Of a stretch of DNA of 14,409 bases, positions 784-14,326 are shown piece after piece. Source of the stretch: Chloroflexota bacterium (lineage in GTDB: Bacteria > Chloroflexota > UBA6077); the NCBI GenBank assembly GCA_021788565.1, contig JAJYKO010000041.1, forward strand, positions 1 through 14,409. Reading direction: 5' to 3'. The notes under the pieces are model-generated. The model ran no database searches and was not told the origin of the DNA. It was given only the letters and a program-made list of their open reading frames with translations. Each line of letters begins with the position of its first letter. Position 1 is the stretch's first letter. A program made the position numbers and the translations under genes.

Positions 784-1665
784 CTACCTCGCGTACCTCC
801 TCGCGACCTCCCGGCAGAAGTAGGCGAACTCGCCGACGTCCTGGGGCGGACTCGTGTGGCTAGGCACTATGCCCCGGCTGGGAGGCGTGAAACAGAGCGT
901 CACCGTCACGTCGAAGCGGCTCAGCTTGCTCATCATCCGGTCGAACCAATCCACCGCGTTCGGCCTGTGCCAGTCGGCCCAGCTGATTCCCGTCCGCAGC
1001 ACCTTGACCCCGAGTCGGGGAAGCCATCGACAGACGAGGTCGAGCATGTCGTCGTCCTCGTACTCCACCCACTGGCAGATCCCGGCCTCCGGTGGGAAGT
1101 GCTCCAGGGACATCTTCGGGGTCTCGTCGCTGCGCAGCAGGCCAAAGTAGAAGTGGCGGTAGTAAGCGCTCCCCTCGCTCTCTTTGTGGCGGGTTATCGC
1201 TCCCTTCTCCACCGGCAGGTCGATCAGCGAGTACCAGTGAACTCGCGGTACGAGGGGCAGCAACAGCTCCATCGTGCGCCGGAGTCCGAACAGCTGCACC
1301 TCCTCGGCGCCGAAGCTGGATGCCCCGACCTCCGTCACCCAGACGGGCCGGCCCGCGGCCTCGCGCATTTCCGCGATCTTCGCCGGCCACTCCTCGATCT
1401 GCCAGAGGTTCCAGTCGAGCGGAAAGCCGTGCAACGCAATGATATCCACGGCATCAGCTACCCCGAAGCGGCACATCCGCTCCGCGAAGTCGGGGTCGAG
1501 GGGCGAAAGGCCCCCGAGCACGCGCGTGACGCCCGGGGCCTCGTTCTTGACTTCCCTGGCGGCGTAAAGGACCATCTGCGAGAAGGTGGTCCACTCCGGA
1601 TCCAGGGTATAATCCCAGTGCGAGAGGTTGTTCGGCTCGTTCCAGAACTGAATGGCCTCGATCAA
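784..1665 (-). CDS. Glycoside-hydrolase-like (GH-A clan type) protein with circularly permuted barrel order
   Basis: This 293-residue protein starts at TTG 1665, with AGGAG at 1677-1673 (7-nt spacing); a TAA at 1737-1735 closes the frame upstream and no ATG/GTG lies between. Residues 8-12 (WNEPN, E10) match the acid/base strand of GH-A TIM-barrel enzymes such as GH39 or GH5, and VWVTEVG (E112) matches the nucleophile strand. The region 195-293, with LGVKVLRTGISWAD (218-231) and VTVTLCFTPP (253-262), looks like strands 1-3 that normally precede WNEPN. The protein ends at VARRYAR, just where an ordinary family member would run into WNEPN. I believe homologues annotated as beta-xylosidase/glycosyl hydrolase share this order, but could not check. 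No signal peptide is seen, so it is probably cytoplasmic. Substrate unknown. It is coupled to the phosphoribosyltransferase-like gene downstream. Confidence 0.8.
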   Translation of the reverse strand: MIEAIQFWNEPNNLSHWDYTLDPEWTTFSQMVLYAAREVKNEAPGVTRVLGGLSPLDPDFAERMCRFGVADAVDIIALHGFPLDWNLWQIEEWPAKIAEMREAAGRPVWVTEVGASSFGAEEVQLFGLRRTMELLLPLVPRVHWYSLIDLPVEKGAITRHKESEGSAYYRHFYFGLLRSDETPKMSLEHFPPEAGICQWVEYEDDDMLDLVCRWLPRLGVKVLRTGISWADWHRPNAVDWFDRMMSKLSRFDVTVTLCFTPPSRGIVPSHTSPPQDVGEFAYFCREVARRYAR

Positions 1666-7228: not shown

Positions 7229-9553
7229 GTGAGCCAATTTGGATCTACCCCGTACGCACGGGGAAACATCGCGGTGATTGGGAACTACATACCCAGACAG
7301 TGTGGCATCGCCACCTTTACCTCCGACCTGGTGGAGGGAATTTCCGTAGCATCTCCCGGATCTAGCTGCTACGCCGTGGCGATGAACGACGTCCCCGAGG
7401 GGTACGACTATCCTCCCAGGGTTCGCTTCGAGGTGAGCGACAAGCGACTGCGCCACTACCAGCTCGCCGCCGATTTTCTCAACGTTCACCGAGTTGACGT
7501 GGTGTGTCTCCAACACGAGTTCGGTATATTTGGTGGAGACCACGGCAAGCACGTCCTTTCGTTGTTGCGCGACCTGCGGATGCCGGTGGTCACCACCCTG
7601 CACACCGTGTTAACCGAGCCGCTCCCCGAGCAGCGGGCCATTATCGAAGAGATAGGAGAGATCTCGGACAGGCTGGTCGTGATGAGCCAGAGAGCACGAG
7701 AGATCCTCCTCGAGTCTTACCGCGTACGTGATAAGAAGATCGTCCTGATCCATCACGGCATTCCCGATTTGCCTTTCATCGATCCCAACTACTACAAGGA
7801 CCAGTTCGGGGTGGAGGGCCGCAAGGTGGTGCTGACCTTTGGATTGCTCTCCCCGGGCAAAGGGGTGGAGTCCATGATCGACGCTCTGCCCAGGGTGGTG
7901 CGGAAGCACCCGGAGACGGCCTATATAATCCTAGGAGCAACTCATCCAAACGTGTTGCGTGAGTCTGGTGAGGCCTACAGGTTATCCCTCCAGCGCCGAG
8001 CCAGGGATCTCGGGGTGGAGAAGCACGTCTTCTTTTACGACAGGTTCGTCGACTTGGAGGAACTGTGCGAGTTCCTGGGGGCGGCTGACATCTACGTAAC
8101 ACCCTACCTGAACAGGGAGCAGGTAGTCTCAGGCACCCTCGCCTATGCCATTGGAGCAGGCAAGGCCTGCGTCTCCACGCCCTACTGGTACGCGGAGGAG
8201 ATGCTGCAGGAAGGGAGGGGGCGGCTGGTCGCTTTCCGCGATCCAGAGGCTCTGGCAGATCAAGTGATCGATCTGCTCTCCAACGAGACCGAGCGGCATG
8301 CCATTCGAAAGCGCGCCTACGCCTTCGGCCGCCAGATGGTCTGGAAAGAGGTCGCTCGACGCTACCTGGACCTGTTCTCCGAAGTTACGGAGGAGCAGGC
8401 GCGCCACCCCAGGATTCCATTCCAGGCAAGATCTCTCCAATCTGCCGTCCAGGAAATGCCGCTTCCCAAGTTCGACCACCTCTTGCGGCTCACGGACGAC
8501 GTCGGTATTCTGCAACACGCCAAGTATCTAGTGCCCGACCGCACTCACGGCTACTGCACCGATGACAATGCTCGCGCCCTGATCCTCGTGTTGATGGCAC
8601 AGAAGTTCCTTCCTGAGGGAAGCGAACTACGAGGCGTCGACTACCGCTATCTCAGTTTTCTTCACCACGCCTTTAACGAGGCGAACGGTTGCTTCCGGAA
8701 CTTTTTAGGCTATGACCGGCGATGGCAGGAGGAGAGGGGTTCCGAGGACAGCCACGGGCGCGGAACCTGGGCGCTGGGCATGACGATCGGGCTATCCAGG
8801 TCAAAGGATCTCGGCGACATGGCCATGGAGATTTTCGGGCGCGCCATATCGACACTGACCACCATGGAGAGCCCAAGGGCTTGGGCTTTCGGCCTGGTGG
8901 CTCTCCACGTCTATTTGAGACGCTTTAGCGGCGACAGCGAAATGAGGCGAGCTCGCGAAAAACTCGCAACCAGACTCTTCGACCTGTACCAGAAAAATGC
9001 CACGGACAATTGGCCTTGGATCGAAGATGTAGTCACCTATGACAATGGCAAGGTCGCTCAAGCGCTGCTTGTTTCCGGGCTTTCCATGCAACGCGACGAC
9101 ATGATAGAGGCCGGACTGCGGTCCTTGGAATGGCTATTGGATACCCAGACCGACCCGAGTGGCCATCTGGTTCCCGTTGGTAACCGTGGGTGGTTCCGGC
9201 GAGGCGGTGAGAAGGCCAGGTTCGACCAGCAGCCCCTTGAGGCGCAGAGCCTTCTCGAAGCCTGCACCGAGGCCTTCAACGTTACCAAAAGCGAGAGGTG
9301 GACCCTCAGGGCACGCCAGTGCCTGGAATGGTTCCTTGGCCGAAATGACTTGGATACTTCGCTGTATGATCACCAGTCCGGCGGCTGCTGCGACGGCCTG
9401 TCAGCTACGGGTGTTAATCGCAACCAGGGCGCCGAGGCTACCTTGGCCTGGCTTCTTTCCTTGATGCAGATGCATATCCACAATTACTCGACGCCAGCCA
9501 AGGTGACATCGAGAATCGTGCCGGAAGGGGTTGGAGTTACGGACGTAGCTTGA
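7229..9553 (+). CDS. GT4-family glycosyltransferase fused to a helical C-terminal domain
   Basis: The start is GTG 7229 behind GAGGAGGT (7215-7222). The 774-residue protein has two parts. Residues about 10-390 form a GT-B fold glycosyltransferase of family 4: GNYIPRQCGIATF (18-30) is the N-terminal acceptor-side loop, VTTLHTVL (121-128) is the family His-containing strand, GLLSPGKGVE (205-214) begins the donor-binding half, and EQVVSGTLAYAIGAGK (298-313) holds the nucleotide-sugar binding Glu. Residues about 410-765 look like an alpha/alpha-barrel domain (GYCTDDNARAL at 441-451; WPWIEDVVTYDNGK later), resembling six-hairpin glycosidase folds. No membrane segment or signal is seen. A GH130 gene follows 50 nt later, so both probably act on the same, likely mannose-containing, glycan. 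Substrate specificity cannot be read from the sequence. Confidence 0.92.
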   Translation: MSQFGSTPYARGNIAVIGNYIPRQCGIATFTSDLVEGISVASPGSSCYAVAMNDVPEGYDYPPRVRFEVSDKRLRHYQLAADFLNVHRVDVVCLQHEFGIFGGDHGKHVLSLLRDLRMPVVTTLHTVLTEPLPEQRAIIEEIGEISDRLVVMSQRAREILLESYRVRDKKIVLIHHGIPDLPFIDPNYYKDQFGVEGRKVVLTFGLLSPGKGVESMIDALPRVVRKHPETAYIILGATHPNVLRESGEAYRLSLQRRARDLGVEKHVFFYDRFVDLEELCEFLGAADIYVTPYLNREQVVSGTLAYAIGAGKACVSTPYWYAEEMLQEGRGRLVAFRDPEALADQVIDLLSNETERHAIRKRAYAFGRQMVWKEVARRYLDLFSEVTEEQARHPRIPFQARSLQSAVQEMPLPKFDHLLRLTDDVGILQHAKYLVPDRTHGYCTDDNARALILVLMAQKFLPEGSELRGVDYRYLSFLHHAFNEANGCFRNFLGYDRRWQEERGSEDSHGRGTWALGMTIGLSRSKDLGDMAMEIFGRAISTLTTMESPRAWAFGLVALHVYLRRFSGDSEMRRAREKLATRLFDLYQKNATDNWPWIEDVVTYDNGKVAQALLVSGLSMQRDDMIEAGLRSLEWLLDTQTDPSGHLVPVGNRGWFRRGGEKARFDQQPLEAQSLLEACTEAFNVTKSERWTLRARQCLEWFLGRNDLDTSLYDHQSGGCCDGLSATGVNRNQGAEATLAWLLSLMQMHIHNYSTPAKVTSRIVPEGVGVTDVA

Positions 9554-9603
9554 AAGGCATTGTCGGCTTGCTCGCGGATGGCACCAAATCTGGAGGTATG
9601 CCT

Positions 9604-10566
9604 ATGGAGAATCCCCATTTCGTGGAACTGTTCCACCGTCATCGCAACAACCCCATTATTATCGCCAAGGACCTACCATATCCGGCAAACACGGTTTTCA
9701 ATGCGGGAGCAGCCTTGGTGGACGGCGAGACTTTGCTGCTGCTGCGAGTTGAGGATCGACGCGGAATATCCCACCTGACTGCGGCCCGGAGCCATGACGG
9801 TTTCGAAAACTGGCGCATCGATGCGGGACCTACCATCCTTCCCAGCCCGTCAACCCACCCCGAGGAGGAATGGGGGATAGAAGACCCGCGGATCACTTAT
9901 CTGGAAGAGGCAGATCTGTGGGCGATCACCTATACGGCCTACTCCACGGCTGGGCCTCTAGTATCCCTCGCCACTACACACGACTTCCGCAGCTTCGAGC
10001 GGCACGGGTCCGTCATGCCGCCAGAAGACAAAGACGCCGCTCTCTTCCCAGTGCGATTCGACGGCCGCTGGGCAATGATACACCGGCCAGTGTCGACCCT
10101 CCCCAACACAGGAGCTCATATCTGGATCTCCTTTTCCCCGGACTTGAAACACTGGGGAGATCACCAGATTCTCCTGCCGGCTCGAAGGGGAGCATGGTGG
10201 GATGCTGACAAAGTGGGGCTGTCGACTCCTCCTTTGCGGACGGAGGAGGGGTGGCTGGTCCTCTACCACGGCGTGAAGTCCACCCCTGCGGGTTCCATAT
10301 ACCGCGTCGGGCTCGCCATGCTGGACCTCGAACACCCGCGCCAGGTTACAAGCAGATCCGACGAGTGGGTGTTCGCACCTGAGGCCGCTTATGAGTTATT
10401 CGGCGACGTGGATAAGGTGGTATTTCCCTGCGGCTGGACGCTGGTGGGCGACGAAATCCGGCTCTACTACGGCGCGGCGGACACCTCGATCGCTTTAGCT
10501 ACCGGCAGCCTTTCCGAACTGCTGGCCTGGCTCACGGTTCACAACTCCTTGCGAGGCTACAAGTGA
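9604..10566 (+). CDS. GH130 family glycoside phosphorylase/hydrolase
   Basis: The family acts on beta-mannosides (phosphorolysis or hydrolysis) through a five-bladed beta-propeller. From ATG 9604 the protein has 320 residues. FNAGAAL (32-38) and the arginine of LLLRVED (45-51) start the first blade, and GIEDPRIT (91-98) contains the signature catalytic Asp94. YHGVKS (221-226) and DKVVFPCGW (270-278) are further family blocks, and LYYGAADTSIALA (287-299) closes the propeller. I chose 9604 because GGAGG (9592-9596) is 7 nt upstream; a longer frame opens at TTG 9550, overlapping the glycosyltransferase stop codon, but has weaker signals. No signal peptide, so cytoplasmic. Phosphorylase versus hydrolase is not decided here. 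Confidence 0.9.
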   Translation: MENPHFVELFHRHRNNPIIIAKDLPYPANTVFNAGAALVDGETLLLLRVEDRRGISHLTAARSHDGFENWRIDAGPTILPSPSTHPEEEWGIEDPRITYLEEADLWAITYTAYSTAGPLVSLATTHDFRSFERHGSVMPPEDKDAALFPVRFDGRWAMIHRPVSTLPNTGAHIWISFSPDLKHWGDHQILLPARRGAWWDADKVGLSTPPLRTEEGWLVLYHGVKSTPAGSIYRVGLAMLDLEHPRQVTSRSDEWVFAPEAAYELFGDVDKVVFPCGWTLVGDEIRLYYGAADTSIALATGSLSELLAWLTVHNSLRGYK

Positions 10567-10924
10567 GTGATACGTCTGGCCCGCCACTCCGTGTCACTGG
10601 GGCCCGCGGGCAAACGTGGTGTCGCTACGCACGGAGCGTCCGGTCTGTCAGCAAGTAGAACTGGCCGTCGTGTAGCATGGCGTCCATCTTGGCCAGTTCA
10701 CACTCGAGTCCGAACCGGTGGGGCTACCTTCTCTATATTCCACTGATTCGGCCGCCTGTATCTCGACATGGTGGACATGGTAGCCATCGAGGTAAACCCC
10801 AGCCGGGGAATGAACCTTCTGATCTCCGGCATCCGAACGTCCGCAACTGTCTGGGAGACCGCTACTCCTGCAAGGGCTGCGAGGTCAGGGTGCCGGTCTG
10901 CCGTTCGTTCGGAGGCTATGGGGG
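10567..10924. other. Gene-poor gap between the GH130 gene and the minus-strand redox unit
   Basis: No confident gene. The gap holds the 10658-10699 inverted repeat and a CCCC-AGCC-GGGG hairpin near 10798-10809. A minus-strand open stretch at 10624-10716 translates plausibly (it contains AKMDAMLHDGQFYLLTDRTL) but is bounded by stops and has no ribosome binding site, so it may be a gene remnant. Confidence 0.35.
10658..10699. repeat. 9-bp inverted repeat with nested hairpin
   Basis: GAACTGGCC (10658-10666) and GGCCAGTTC (10691-10699) are exact reverse complements around 24 nt that contain a smaller ATGG-cgt-CCAT hairpin. It lies ~95 nt after the GH130 stop. There is no T-tract, so a factor-independent terminator role is doubtful. 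Confidence 0.5.
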
Positions 10925-10973
10925 AAAAAAAGAGACCCGGCGACCTGCCCACTGGATAGAGGTTGCCGGGTCT
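10925..10973 (-). terminator. Intrinsic terminator of the DsrE-FTR unit
   Basis: Read on the minus strand, AGACCCGGCAACCT (10973-10960) pairs with AGGTCGCCGGGTCT (10946-10933): 14 bp with one G-U wobble and a 13-nt loop. One base later comes a run of seven Ts (10931-10925). It lies 77 nt past the stop of the FTR-like gene. The short TCTTTCT on the other side gives only weak plus-strand activity. Confidence 0.92.
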
Positions 10974-11049
10974 TTCTGCTCTGGTCCGATCCGACGCTTG
11001 CGCCCGCACGGGGCTCACGAGCCGGCTCCCAATCCGGCTCCGCGCTCAC

Positions 11050-11760
11050 TCAGGAACGCTTCAGGGTGACTTCATAGGCTCCTGAACTGGCCTCTCGACG
11101 GTCAAAGCCGAACCCTCGGGAAGCCGCCACTTTCCCGAGGTTGTCGACCGATGCCTCCCGATCCACCACTATCAGGAGATCGCCCGATACCGCGTTCAGG
11201 GCTTGCTTGACCTGATGGGTGGCGTCGGGCACCGGTAGGCCCCGGCGCGGATCCAGGGGCTGCCCGCGGGTGTCCAGGCGGTTTCCGACAAGCTTCAGCC
11301 CGGGCCGGTACTCCCGCTGCAGCTCCTTCTCGGCGGCGGCGAACTCGGCGTCGGTCAGTCCGCCTCTTCCGAACAGCACACAGTGGCAGACTCCCTTTGC
11401 CTCGACGTCGGCCAGCGCGAAGGAGCACGGGCAGAGCAGCTTCCTGTCCAGACCCTCCTCACCCGATGGCTCGAAGCAGGGGCACTGCTGCCTGCCGTAC
11501 AGGTCGCGGCTCTCCTCTATCCAGATCTTCAGGTTGGTGTAAAACATCGCGTGGGGGTTCACCCGCAGCCCTTTGGCCCGGGCGTACTTCTGGATCCACA
11601 CGTCGTCACGCTTCATTCTCTTCCGGTACTTCCACCAGCCCGCAAAGAAGTCCCGATACATCTTAAGGTCCGCCATGAAACTCGACAAAAGCTCACCATC
11701 TTCCATTTGAGACTGGGGGACCGGACCAGAGCGCCCCACCTTCAAACGAGCCAGGGCCAT
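11050..11760 (-). CDS. Ferredoxin:thioredoxin reductase catalytic-like domain fused to a degenerate TusA-like domain
   Basis: The 236-residue protein starts at ATG 11760 with GAGGA upstream. Residues about 50-140 match the catalytic beta chain of ferredoxin:thioredoxin reductase. CPC (93-95), CPC (110-112) and CHC (125-127) supply, by analogy with the cyanobacterial enzyme, [4Fe-4S] ligands C93, C110, C112 and C125 and the redox disulfide C95-C127. The gap between the second and third motif (12 residues) is longer than in plants. Residues about 160-236 resemble TusA: LDTRG (162-166), an amphipathic helix at 181-191, LLIVVDREASVDNLGKVA (195-212). However, the TusA CPxP cysteine is absent (the matching region reads GLPVP). 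It follows the DsrE gene by 19 nt. A role in disulfide or sulfur-carrier reduction with ferredoxin electrons is inference. Confidence 0.85.
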   Translation of the reverse strand: MALARLKVGRSGPVPQSQMEDGELLSSFMADLKMYRDFFAGWWKYRKRMKRDDVWIQKYARAKGLRVNPHAMFYTNLKIWIEESRDLYGRQQCPCFEPSGEEGLDRKLLCPCSFALADVEAKGVCHCVLFGRGGLTDAEFAAAEKELQREYRPGLKLVGNRLDTRGQPLDPRRGLPVPDATHQVKQALNAVSGDLLIVVDREASVDNLGKVAASRGFGFDRREASSGAYEVTLKRS

Positions 11761-11779
11761 ACCCGCTATCCTCTATCCC

Positions 11780-12133
11780 CTACGTGTAATGCACCTTGCC
11801 CGCTCTCGACAGGGCCTCCACGATGGCCTGCATATCGCCAACGCGGCCGATAGCCAGCCTGTCCTGGAGCCCGAAGTAGTTGACACAGGTGCCGCACAGG
11901 ACTATCTCGGACCCCTTCTGGGAGAGCACCTCCAGCATCGGCACCGCGGAGGAGCCCTGGTCGGCCAACTTCACGCCGCTGTTGTAGCAGACCACCGTCC
12001 CGGGAACGTCGTCCCTAAAGGCGATCGTGCGTAAGAAGTTCACCATCAGCTGCGCGCCAAGCTCGTCGTCGCCCCGGCCAAGAGTGGCGGAGTCCAGAAC
12101 TAGCACCGTATCGGGAGATGGTCGTTGTTCCAT
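11780..12133 (-). CDS. DsrE-family protein like the C-terminal half of YedF
   Basis: The 117-residue protein matches the C-terminal DsrE-like domain of YedF-type (selenium/sulfur relay) proteins: LGRGDDELGAQLMVNFL (18-34), YNSGVKLA (50-57), then the conserved cysteine motif LCGTC (C80, C83) followed by VNYFGLQDRLAIG (84-96) and a C-terminal AGKVHYT. In canonical YedF an N-terminal TusA domain precedes this part; here it is missing, and a TusA-like domain is instead at the C-terminus of the next gene. The start is ATG 12133 with AAGGTG 7 nt upstream. It is cotranscribed with the FTR-like gene (19-nt gap). Likely cytoplasmic persulfide or thiol chemistry; the exact substrate is unknown. Confidence 0.9.
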   Translation of the reverse strand: MEQRPSPDTVLVLDSATLGRGDDELGAQLMVNFLRTIAFRDDVPGTVVCYNSGVKLADQGSSAVPMLEVLSQKGSEIVLCGTCVNYFGLQDRLAIGRVGDMQAIVEALSRAGKVHYT

Positions 12134-12271
12134 ATCGCTTCACCTTCTGTCCGTAGAGTGTGGATGGGATCCCATGCTGATCGAAGTCGATACTGAGGTT
12201 GGCCCACATCTGCCTGTTGTCTGTGGTCATCTCTCCTGTGCTTCCTTCCGCGACTGTCTTTAGACATAAAT

Positions 12272-12301
12272 TTGGCCGGACACCCAAGAGCGTCCGGCCA
12301 A
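12272..12301 (-). terminator. Terminator- or attenuator-like hairpin upstream of the DsrE gene
   Basis: TTGGCCGGAC (12301-12292 on the minus strand) pairs perfectly with GTCCGGCCAA (12281-12272) around a 10-nt loop, and is followed by AATTTATGTC. A second hairpin, GTCCTG/CAGGAC (12331-12312), precedes it and overlaps the stop of the small upstream ORF. It is in the leader of the DsrE-FTR unit, 139 nt before its start codon, so it could terminate the micro-ORF transcript or act as an attenuator. The tail is only moderately T-rich. Confidence 0.5.
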
Positions 12302-12324
12302 CACCTTCTAAGTCCTGGAAGGAG

Positions 12325-12469
12325 TCAGGACAGTAAATCACAGCCCTCCCGGAGGATGTCGCACTCCCGGGGCAAGGGACGCTCTTTGAGCAGACGACTG
12401 ATGCAGAACCTGCATCGATCCACTACGGGCTCAGGTTCAGGTCTGGCTGAGACGCAGCCAATCAGTCAT
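12325..12469 (-). CDS. Cys-rich micro-ORF, apparently frameshifted
   Basis: ATG 12469 has GGGGGTGA upstream, reads MTDWLRLSQT, and then hits TGA at 12439-12437. Dropping one base there would join it to a second frame (12423-12325 from GTG 12423), continuing EPEPVVDRC and giving a 47-residue product with four cysteines spaced C-x2-C-x13-C-x6-C, ending GCDLLS. The second frame alone is open for 32 codons. The codons are GC-biased in third position as in a real gene. A promoter (12564-12536) and a hairpin (12301-12272) flank it. It may be a frameshifted small gene, a programmed frameshift or sequencing error, or a leader peptide. No family is recognised. Confidence 0.4.
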
Positions 12470-12535
12470 TACCCTCACCCCCTTTCCACGAGTTGCGGCC
12501 CTCCAGCCGGAGTGCCACGTTCAACTTACGAACCG

Positions 12536-12564
12536 AGTGTATCTATGTAGGCGCTGTTTTGCAA
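12536..12564 (-). promoter_or_regulatory. Possible promoter of the Cys-rich ORF / DsrE-FTR unit
   Basis: On the minus strand TTGCAA (12564-12559) and TACACT (12541-12536) are spaced 17 nt apart, each matching 4/6 of the sigma-70 type consensus. It lies about 70 nt upstream of the Cys-rich ORF start, and MerA ends ~110 nt further upstream. Confidence 0.4.
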
Positions 12565-12676
12565 TCGTTTCCCAAACCTCAGCAGAGGAGCGCATCTCAC
12601 CTCAGGTCCATCTGTAAGCTGTGGCGGCTTTGGAGCTCCTGCCCGATCGAGGATGCCTTACTCAAGGCCGTCCCCT

Positions 12677-14326
12677 TTAGGCCGCGCAGCACGACAGCTT
12701 GGATACATCTCGCCCGAAGGTCTGGGCAGCAAGCTTGAGTCCCTCAGCCATGGTCAGATACGGGGCAAAGGTCGAAGTGAGGTCGGACACCGTGAGGTGG
12801 AACTTCACCGCGAGGGTCGCCGCGTAGATCACCTCCCCGGCGTTCTCGGCCACCACATGCGCGCCCAGCACCCGGTCTGTCCTAGCGTCCGCCACCAGCT
12901 TGAACACACCCTCCGTTGCCCGGTTCGCAAGCGCCCGTGGAACGGCGTTGGCCGGTAGGACCGAGGTCTTCACGTCAAACCCCGATGCCCGCGCCGCGGC
13001 CTCGGTGAGTCCCACCGTCGCCACCGAGGGGGTCGTGAAGATCACCCCTGGAACGGTAGAGAGATCGACCGCCCGCGCTCCTCCGAGGGCGTTTTCGGCG
13101 ACGAGCGAGCCCTCGTAGGCGGCCACGTAGACGAACTGCGGGCCTAGAGTCACGTCGCCCGCGGCGAAAACCCTCCGGTTGCTGGTCCTCAGCTGCTCGT
13201 CCACCAACACCTCTCCACGCTCGCCAACGGCCACGCCAGCCCGGTCCAGGCGCAGCGCGCCCGTGTTGGGCTGTCGTCCCACCGCCACGAGGAGTTGCTC
13301 AGCCTCGACCACTCGCTTCTCGCCGTCGACGTCGAGCGTGACGCGGTACCCATCGTTCGTGCGCTCGACCCGCCGGTATTCTGCCCCGGTGACGAAGCTT
13401 ATCCCCTGTCCGGTCATGGTCTCGAAGACGGCGTCGGAGACCTCAGGCTCGTACTTCTTGAGGATACGGGTGCTGCGCTGCATGAGGGTCACGCGGCTCC
13501 CCAGGTGGTGGAAGAGCTGTCCCATCTCCAGGGCGACGTAGCCCGAGCCGATGACGGCGAGGCTCTTGGGTAACTCTCTGAGATCCAGGGCCGTCGTGCT
13601 GGTCAGATATCCTGCCTCCGCAAGACCCGGGATTGACGGGATGGCTGGGGAGGCGCCGGTGGCGATGAGGAAGTTCCGGGCGCTCACCGTTCTGCCGGCC
13701 ACCTCGAGCCGCCCCTGGTCCAAGAAGGCCGCCTCGCCCCTGATCAACTCCCAGCCGTACTCCCCGATCAGATCCTCGTACTTCTCTCGGCGCAGGCGGC
13801 CCACCAGTTCGTCCTTCTGTTCCACCAGCGCCGCCATATCCACAGTGCCGGCAGCCGTCCCGACGCCGGTGAAGGGCTGGTGGCCCGCCTGGTAGAAAAG
13901 CTCCCCGGCTCTCAGCTGGGTCTTGCTGGGCACGCAGCCGACGTTGACACAGGTTCCCCCGATGGTTCCCCGCTCGATCATCACGACCGAGGCGCCGGCC
14001 TCCCGAGCCTTGATCGCGGCGGCGAAGGCTGCGCTGCCAGAGCCGACGATCGCCAGGTCGCAGCCGGTACCCGAGGCCGCTACCTGTCCGGCCGTAATCC
14101 GCGGGAGGACTTCCACCGCACCAGGCTGATATCCCGCCGCCGCCACCGCTCGGGTGAGAGGGCCGGCGTCGGTCCCCGCCGGCACCTCGACCAGCGCCTC
14201 GCCCGCCATGTGGTCCACCTTCAGGACCTTTGCCCCGGCCTCCTGCAAAGCTTCGGCCACGGACATCTCGCAGTGGCGGCAGGTCATGCCCTGAACATCT
14301 ATGCGTAGTCGCTCGATTTCACTCAC
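12677..14326 (-). CDS. merA: Mercuric reductase MerA with N-terminal heavy-metal-associated domain
   Basis: The 549-residue cytoplasmic flavoprotein reduces Hg(II) to Hg(0) with NADPH. An N-terminal HMA domain (1-75) carries GMTCRHC (C16, C19). The FAD-binding start is IVGSGSAAFAAAIKA (93-107), and the redox disulfide is in GGTCVNVGCVPSK (C126, C131). A central NAD(P)-binding motif VIGSGYVALEMG precedes VAVGRQPNT and the FAD-site GD in VFAAGDVT. The C-terminal vicinal cysteine pair diagnostic of MerA is present (SCCAA; C546, C547), which separates it from other disulfide oxidoreductases. The start is GTG 14326 with GGAGAG upstream. The stop is TAA 12679-12677; only a weak 5-bp hairpin (12655-12668) follows. 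No merR is in the window; the preceding gene ends 30 nt upstream, so co-transcription is likely. Confidence 0.95.
   Translation of the reverse strand: MSEIERLRIDVQGMTCRHCEMSVAEALQEAGAKVLKVDHMAGEALVEVPAGTDAGPLTRAVAAAGYQPGAVEVLPRITAGQVAASGTGCDLAIVGSGSAAFAAAIKAREAGASVVMIERGTIGGTCVNVGCVPSKTQLRAGELFYQAGHQPFTGVGTAAGTVDMAALVEQKDELVGRLRREKYEDLIGEYGWELIRGEAAFLDQGRLEVAGRTVSARNFLIATGASPAIPSIPGLAEAGYLTSTTALDLRELPKSLAVIGSGYVALEMGQLFHHLGSRVTLMQRSTRILKKYEPEVSDAVFETMTGQGISFVTGAEYRRVERTNDGYRVTLDVDGEKRVVEAEQLLVAVGRQPNTGALRLDRAGVAVGERGEVLVDEQLRTSNRRVFAAGDVTLGPQFVYVAAYEGSLVAENALGGARAVDLSTVPGVIFTTPSVATVGLTEAAARASGFDVKTSVLPANAVPRALANRATEGVFKLVADARTDRVLGAHVVAENAGEVIYAATLAVKFHLTVSDLTSTFAPYLTMAEGLKLAAQTFGRDVSKLSCCAA

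What the first reader, a model, noticed from the sequence alone, without database searches (positions are those of the whole stretch)
11050..12133. Split and rearranged YedF: DsrE half stands alone, TusA-like half is fused to a ferredoxin:thioredoxin reductase-like catalytic domain
YedF proteins normally carry TusA then DsrE in one chain. Here the DsrE part is a separate 117-aa gene, and the TusA-like part sits at the C-terminus of the next gene behind a complete CPC/CPC/CHC iron-sulfur redox domain. The TusA-like part lacks the active CPxP cysteine. This predicts a complex in which ferredoxin electrons are passed through the 4Fe-4S/disulfide domain to thiols or persulfides on DsrE (C80/C83). 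The motifs are seen directly; the function is inference.
Basis: partly seen in the sequence, partly recalled or inferred. Interest (0 to 1): 0.8.

Follow-up and report, generated by a model that had tools for sequence, protein, structure and literature searches.

The report
Ferredoxin reductase tied to selenium use
Two neighbouring genes encode an iron-sulfur redox enzyme and a small selenium-linked partner; in some other bacteria the same enzyme is fused to the protein that activates selenium, so it may be how these microbes chemically prepare selenium for use.

Summary
Window 11050-11760 (-) encodes an FTR-type iron-sulfur domain with all six CPC/CPC/CHC cysteines, then a TusA-fold domain without the CPxP cysteine; 11780-12133 (-) encodes a stand-alone DsrE matching the C-half of YedF. 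But stand-alone DsrE is common without FTR-TusA, so 'split YedF' is not a shared event. Best reading: a ferredoxin-driven reductase helping supply reduced selenium to SelD. Function is inferred; SelD co-occurrence (43 of 49 genomes) is little above class baselines of 58-84%, and 53 of 70 places show no such neighbour. New variant of a known kind.

The parts
11050..11760 (-). FTR-TusA gene (236 aa as read from ATG 11760; the start may lie further downstream, e.g. TTG 11688 or ATG 11676)
11335..11625 (-). ferredoxin-disulfide reductase (FTR catalytic) domain, about residues 46-142
11380..11484 (-). CPC (93-95), CPC (110-112), CHC (125-127) cysteine motifs
   Evidence: 141-142 of 142 sequences
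11053..11289 (-). TusA-fold domain without CPxP cysteine, residues 158-236
11206..11229 (-). invariant P178-D179-x-x-H182-x-x-K185 motif, about where TusA has CPxP and helix 1
   Evidence: 142 of 142 sequences
11780..12133 (-). stand-alone DsrE gene, corresponding to the C-terminal half of YedF (117 aa)
   Evidence: TIGR03527 116.3 bits; DsrE fold
11885..11896 (-). CGTC redox motif of DsrE (C80, C83)
   Evidence: both cysteines invariant in 21 aligned sequences, window included
10933..10973 (-). possible terminator hairpin with T-run after the FTR-TusA gene (weak)
   Evidence: z -1.26, 21 of 200 shuffles fold as well; not listed by the scan

Best explanation
FTR-TusA is a ferredoxin-dependent disulfide/perselenide reductase of selenium assimilation. 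Reduced ferredoxin passes electrons to the [4Fe-4S]-disulfide centre (C93, C95, C110, C112, C125, C127). The centre reduces an S-S or S-Se bond on a carrier cysteine: C80/C83 of the neighbouring DsrE or, in SelD fusions, the linker cysteine of a C-x-P-P-x-P-like motif. This releases selenide or bound perselenide for SelD, which makes selenophosphate. The TusA-like domain, with no CPxP cysteine but with invariant R173 and PDxxHxxK, docks the partner (DsrE or SelD) and does not carry the atom itself. Shown: domains, folds, conserved residues, gene pairing, SelD fusion, double-cubane and SelD-SelA-SelB neighbourhoods. Inferred: ferredoxin as donor, selenium as substrate, the docking role, the direction of transfer.
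For: All 27 long proteins (402-731 aa) found with this FTR-TusA region carry SelD-type domains (PF00586 and PF02769; one partial has PF02769 only); the five fusions scanned (L036, L039, L052, P0055, P0079) pass SelD equivalog cut-offs. The 31 fused tips form one clade, support 0.999. 27 of 27 have a cysteine 74-75 residues before the first CPC; 42 of 50 stand-alone forms have none N-terminal of CPC. The GCG(C/S)K motif of SelD is kept in 26 of 27, the other being partial. DsrE is beside FTR-TusA in 8 of 70 places, in Bacillota, Actinomycetota, Chloroflexota and Campylobacterota besides the window. L023 has FTR-TusA, full YedF and SelD in a row. DsrE lies in SelD-DsrE-SelA-SelB (L069) and SelD-DsrE...SelB (L067, L068). 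Double-cubane reductase and activase lie upstream, activase 6-12 nt away, in L024, L028, L029, and nearby in L026, L075. 48 of 49 genomes have SelD, SelB or MnmH over cut-off. Papers: YedF tied to SelD (PMC5322559, passages); a fused NADH oxidoreductase proposed as reductant for SelD's substrate (PMC2432076, passages); thioredoxin reduces selenite for selenoprotein synthesis (PMC8538045, abstract).
Against: SelD is common anyway in the classes measured: 66 of 82, 144 of 247, 208 of 249 genomes, so 43 of 49 is weak. 53 of 70 FTR-TusA places show none of the three neighbours sought (DsrE, SelD, double-cubane) within at most 8 kb of flank; 32 of these 53 are Campylobacterota by title. The SelD fusion is a single event and the search for fusions started from one. 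The three fused spirochaete genomes have neither SelB nor MnmH over cut-off, so the use of their selenophosphate is unknown. 8 of 50 stand-alone forms do have 1-2 cysteines N-terminal of CPC. No selenium gene beyond the DsrE was seen in the window; its neighbour is mercuric reductase. DsrE and TusA folds are best known from sulfur transfer.
Confidence: 0.5

Rival explanations
1. A ferredoxin-dependent persulfide (sulfur) reductase: FTR-TusA reduces sulfane sulfur on DsrE or other carriers for sulfur trafficking, and its meeting with SelD is secondary.
For: 34 of the 66 loci carry titles naming Campylobacterota such as Sulfurimonas and Sulfurovum (sulfur metabolism of these recalled). DsrE and TusA structures matched include sulfur-transfer proteins. 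32 of these 34 have no selenium-linked neighbour among those sought.
Against: The only fusion partner found is SelD, 27 of 27. DsrE is the YedF-C type and sits in a SelD-SelA-SelB operon. Sulfur-oxidation genes beside FTR-TusA were not searched for.
Confidence: 0.27
2. A redox guard for SelD and its selenium partners: FTR-TusA keeps the SelD catalytic Cys/Sec and the DsrE CGxC thiols reduced and does not handle selenium itself.
For: FTR catalytic subunits normally reduce protein disulfides (recalled). Fusion to SelD puts the centre on the same chain as its conserved cysteine.
Against: It does not explain the linker cysteine of 27 of 27 fusions, the double-cubane neighbours, or pairing with DsrE away from SelD.
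Confidence: 0.13
3. Literal split YedF: the two genes simply replace a single-chain YedF after gene fission and refusion, with YedF's unchanged function.
For: Full YedF is in 3 of 49 FTR-TusA genomes, stand-alone YedF-type DsrE in 8, four of them over the model's cut-off. In the class of G028, four of the five FTR-TusA genomes have the stand-alone type and none the full type.
Against: Stand-alone DsrE is common without FTR-TusA. The TusA part lacks YedF's CPxP cysteine and has another invariant motif. 38 of 49 FTR-TusA genomes have neither form, apart from a few weak partial hits.
Confidence: 0.1

Closest known systems
Ferredoxin-disulfide reductases: FTR catalytic subunit (1dj7, 2pu9, 7c2b), Grx-FTR fusion 7pwe, Methanosarcina 4tpu
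   Same: Same fold and cysteine pattern; fusion of the centre to an acceptor domain is already known in 7pwe (title).
   Different: The fused domain is TusA-like with no cysteine at CPxP, instead of glutaredoxin. An FTR alpha subunit gene was not searched for.
YedF (TIGR03527; also called FdhU in PMC5322559), TusA+DsrE selenium metabolism protein
   Same: The DsrE half passes the YedF model on its own; CGxC kept.
   Different: Separate gene; the TusA-like domain is in another chain behind an FTR domain and lacks the CPxP Cys.
Ndh-SelD and NifS-SelD fusions (PMC4561486, PMC2398784, PMC2432076; passages read)
   Same: A redox or selenium-delivery partner fused to SelD; Ndh was proposed to reduce the selenium substrate.
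   Different: PMC4561486 states that the fusions it found lie on the N-terminal side of SelD; here FTR-TusA is C-terminal and the donor would be ferredoxin.
NF041072 FtrB family double-selenoprotein; GOS FTR selenoproteins (PMC2398784 passages)
   Same: FTR family; weak score to that model (35-53 bits).
   Different: Far below its cut-off of 160; active-site residues are cysteines; the model has 121 positions, too short for FTR plus TusA.

Membership tests
FTR / ferredoxin-disulfide reductase catalytic family (PF02943) | profile score over curated cut-off | tested here: met
   41.7 bits against 22
FTR / ferredoxin-disulfide reductase catalytic family (PF02943) | CPC-CPC-CHC cysteines (cluster ligands plus active disulfide) | tested here: met
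   which are ligands and which form the disulfide is recalled from plant FTR, not tested
FTR / ferredoxin-disulfide reductase catalytic family (PF02943) | fold | tested here: met
FTR / ferredoxin-disulfide reductase catalytic family (PF02943) | [4Fe-4S] cluster and ferredoxin-dependent activity | not testable with these tools
   needs purified protein
TusA (PF01206) | profile score over curated cut-off | tested here: not met
   window 17.7 bits against 28.6; 5 of 52 homologues have a precomputed hit
TusA (PF01206) | TusA fold | tested here: met
TusA (PF01206) | CPxP sulfur-carrying cysteine | tested here: not met
   absent in 142 sequences; so TusA-like, not an active TusA
YedF (TIGR03527) | TusA and DsrE in one chain | tested here: not met
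   two genes
YedF (TIGR03527) | model score and CGxC motif in the DsrE part | tested here: met
   116.3 bits against 110; C80, C83
YedF (TIGR03527) | SelD in the same genome | not testable with these tools
   no genome held for the window; 43 of 49 relatives' genomes have SelD over cut-off
DsrE (PF02635) | profile score and fold | tested here: met

The most novel reading that the evidence does not exclude
SelD-FTR-TusA is a self-contained, ferredoxin-driven selenophosphate factory. The FTR centre reduces selenium held on the linker cysteine and hands selenide straight to the SelD active site, so toxic free selenide never leaves the protein. In other bacteria the same job is done in trans by DsrE plus FTR-TusA, in some fed by a double-cubane reductase. 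In spirochaetes without SelB or MnmH it would serve a selenium use not yet recognised.
Probability: 0.28. Interest if true: 0.82.

Novelty: new variant of a known kind. Interest (0 to 1): 0.62.

Why it matters
How cells, anaerobes above all, reduce selenium compounds and deliver selenide to SelD is still unsettled; thioredoxin and fused NADH oxidoreductases are among the proposals (PMC8538045 abstract; PMC2432076 passages). A conserved ferredoxin-type reductase that in one clade is fused to SelD, carries there a linker cysteine in every member found, and elsewhere pairs with the YedF-type DsrE gives that question concrete, purifiable proteins. It also gives YedF, whose function PMC5322559 calls unknown (passages), a candidate electron source.

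Tried and rejected
Selenocysteine in FTR-TusA: L033 has an in-frame TGA exactly at the last CHC cysteine, but its genome G032 has no SelB over cut-off and no other carrier turned up among 48 genomes of its class. Sequencing error or decay is as likely; dropped.

SelD co-occurrence as proof: 43 of 49 looked strong against 2 of 14 control genomes, but class baselines are 58-84%; kept only as weak support. Mobile origin: no plasmid match and no relative in viral contigs. A conserved operon across all relatives: clustering showed mostly unrelated neighbours. Known RNA in the window: none at gathering scores. Sigma-70-type promoter in 10560-12760: none found, 0.3 expected by chance. PDB sequence search with DsrE: no relative, settled by fold comparison. 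The first DsrE search with one query sequence missed the L025 neighbour; a profile found it. Orientation of FTR toward TusA or DsrE was not examined: no coordinates to hand, and no complex was modelled.

Literature (openly licensed papers only): no paper held FTR plus TusA, nor SelD, fused, ferredoxin, selenium and spirochaete together. Listings showed no title on this fusion; only the papers named here were opened, and of those mostly passages. PMC13188914, PMC9312934 and PMC11097638 were also searched for passages and add nothing on FTR-TusA.

Full report

Conservation. In 142 aligned sequences (window, 51 homologues, 27 SelD fusions, and loci; ten short hits from seven loci dropped; some loci duplicate database proteins) the six FTR cysteines are kept in 141-142. 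In the TusA-like part R173, P178, D179, H182 and K185 are kept in 142 of 142, while no cysteine stands at CPxP. The domain is therefore under strong constraint for something other than carrying sulfur on CPxP. In DsrE both cysteines of CGTC are invariant in 21 sequences, window included.

Distribution. The protein search gave 52 relatives, one a fragment. The genome scan gave 66 loci, by title in Bacillota, Campylobacterota, Chloroflexota, Actinomycetota, Spirochaetota, Bacteroidota and others. Within four classes, each chosen because it holds a known carrier, it is rare: 5 of 82, 5 of 246, 1 of 48, 3 of 248. No relative was found in plasmids or viral contigs.

Neighbours. I counted 70 places: the window, the 66 loci (L030 and L066 lie in one genome and are probably two pieces of one gene) and three further genomes found (L075-L077). 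Flanks are at most 8 kb and many contigs end sooner. DsrE lies within 350 nt in 8: window, L003, L023 (there as full YedF), L025, L027, L075, L076 and L077. Order and orientation vary (DsrE first, FTR first, or convergent), and on a midpoint-rooted tree the smallest clade holding them is the whole tree of 142 tips. So the link is old or repeatedly renewed. In the class of G003, 4 of 5 carriers have it; the fifth gene is cut by a contig end. Double-cubane reductase plus activase lie within 1.6 kb in L024, L026, L028, L029 and L075, the activase 6-12 nt away in L024, L028 and L029. L025 has a divergent reductase 592 nt off (and a reductase-activase pair 5-7 kb off); a second, degraded FTR copy in the same genome (L071) has reductase, activase and DsrE. 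NCBIfam names were checked only for L075 and L070, the latter being the L025 place (NF040772 495.5 and 430.8 bits against 350; activase TIGR00241 193.7 against 125.4); the rest rest on my own profiles. In all, 17 of 70 places show DsrE, double-cubane or SelD as neighbour or fusion; 53 show none.

SelD. Four loci (L031, L036, L039, L052) encode SelD and FTR-TusA in one chain. A search with the FTR-TusA part of one of them, limited by the tool to proteins of about 355-1130 aa, returned 27; all carry SelD-type domains (one 402-aa partial only PF02769). The five fusions scanned pass SelD models; GCG(C/S)K is kept in 26 of 27. Every one of the 27 has a cysteine in a C-x-P-P-x-P-like linker 74-75 residues before the first CPC (a few differ in the prolines); in stand-alone forms 42 of 50 have no cysteine N-terminal of CPC and 8 have one or two, one more not scored. 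The 31 fused tips are one clade, support 0.999. Also, L023 has FTR-TusA, YedF and SelD in a row, and L010 has SelD 3.2 kb away. In Actinomycetota the stand-alone DsrE sits between SelD and SelA-SelB in L069 (DsrE 108.9 bits, just under cut-off), and L067 and L068 have SelD-DsrE with SelB downstream; FTR-TusA lies elsewhere in those genomes.

Genome-level tests. Of 49 genomes (50 of the 66 loci submitted), SelD is over cut-off in 43, SelB in 24, MnmH in 29, and at least one of the three in 48. The exception, G033, is a 1.5-Mb assembly. Against this, SelD is in 66 of 82, 144 of 247 and 208 of 249 genomes of three of the classes, and no Campylobacterota baseline was measured, so co-occurrence proves little. 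Full YedF is in 3 of the 49; stand-alone YedF-type DsrE is in 8 (G003, G017, G024, G025, G026, G027, G028, G029; four over cut-off). Stand-alone DsrE without FTR-TusA is common (42 genomes in the capped list). The three fused spirochaete genomes have neither SelB nor MnmH over cut-off, and the fused deltaproteobacterium G041 has a second, TGA-containing SelD. These assemblies may be incomplete.

Mechanism. FTR catalytic domains take electrons from ferredoxin and reduce a disulfide (recalled). YedF is linked to SelD and its CGxC motif was suggested to act in selenium redox steps (PMC5322559, passages). A fused NADH oxidoreductase was proposed to make SelD's substrate (PMC2432076, passages), and thioredoxin reduces selenite for selenoprotein synthesis (PMC8538045, abstract). 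Double-cubane proteins have been tied to selenium clusters (PMC10418091, passages), and activase and dehydratase-type genes appear in the YedF column of an association table in PMC5322559. The simplest common reading is a ferredoxin-driven reductase acting on selenium carried by DsrE or by the fusion's linker cysteine, to the benefit of SelD. Sulfur as the true substrate remains the main rival.

Novelty. PMC4561486 (passages) reports NADH dehydrogenase-like and NifS-like SelD fusions in prokaryotes, all on the N-terminal side. I found no paper on FTR with TusA or on a SelD-ferredoxin reductase fusion (only openly licensed papers are searchable). FTR centres fused to acceptor domains are known (7pwe). 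Hence: new variant of a known kind.

Noticed in passing
window 12677-14326 (-): Mercuric reductase MerA (TIGR02053, 604.5 bits against 454.45) with an N-terminal HMA domain just at cut-off, upstream of the DsrE gene on the same strand; a terminator-like hairpin at 12272-12301 lies between them (2 such sites found in the region, 1.3 expected).
   Followed up: partly
window 784-1665 (-): Weak Glyco_hydro_cc hit (22.2 bits against 21); by eye the frame holds the end of one such barrel followed by the start of another, as in a permuted or tandem gene. Not tested.
   Followed up: no
window 7229-10566 (+): Glycosyltransferase group 1 protein (774 aa) followed by a GH130-family gene; the second half of the long protein has no Pfam hit.
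   Followed up: no
L010 5606-6181, L027 86-646, L053 1610-2077, L075 5224-5712: A small HAD-type hydrolase recurs near FTR-TusA in four loci of different phyla (Pfam scores just under cut-off for the two scanned).
   Followed up: partly
L036 4066-6531: ABC transporter genes (NMT1-type binding protein and permease by Pfam, ATPase by eye) lie directly upstream of the SelD-FTR-TusA fusion.
   Followed up: partly
L031 2172-5983 and L039 8820-12630: A DctP-type TRAP transporter set and a DHDPS-family gene follow the SelD-FTR-TusA fusion in two spirochaetes (two L039 genes scanned, the rest by clustering and eye).
   Followed up: partly
L003 10752-14318: Xanthine-dehydrogenase-type genes about 3 kb downstream of DsrE-FTR-TusA; the one subunit scanned also matches the selenium-dependent XDH model, far below cut-off.
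   Followed up: no
L071 4297-4757 (-): Second FTR copy in genome G025, next to DsrE and double-cubane genes, keeps only a short out-of-frame remnant of its TusA part.
   Followed up: partly
L033 3248-3250: In-frame TGA at the last CHC cysteine of FTR-TusA in a Caldithrix assembly that has no SelB over cut-off.
   Followed up: yes
genomes G031, G035, G037: The only SelD over cut-off is the SelD-FTR-TusA fusion, and neither SelB nor MnmH is over cut-off: a possible orphan-SelD selenium use.
   Followed up: partly
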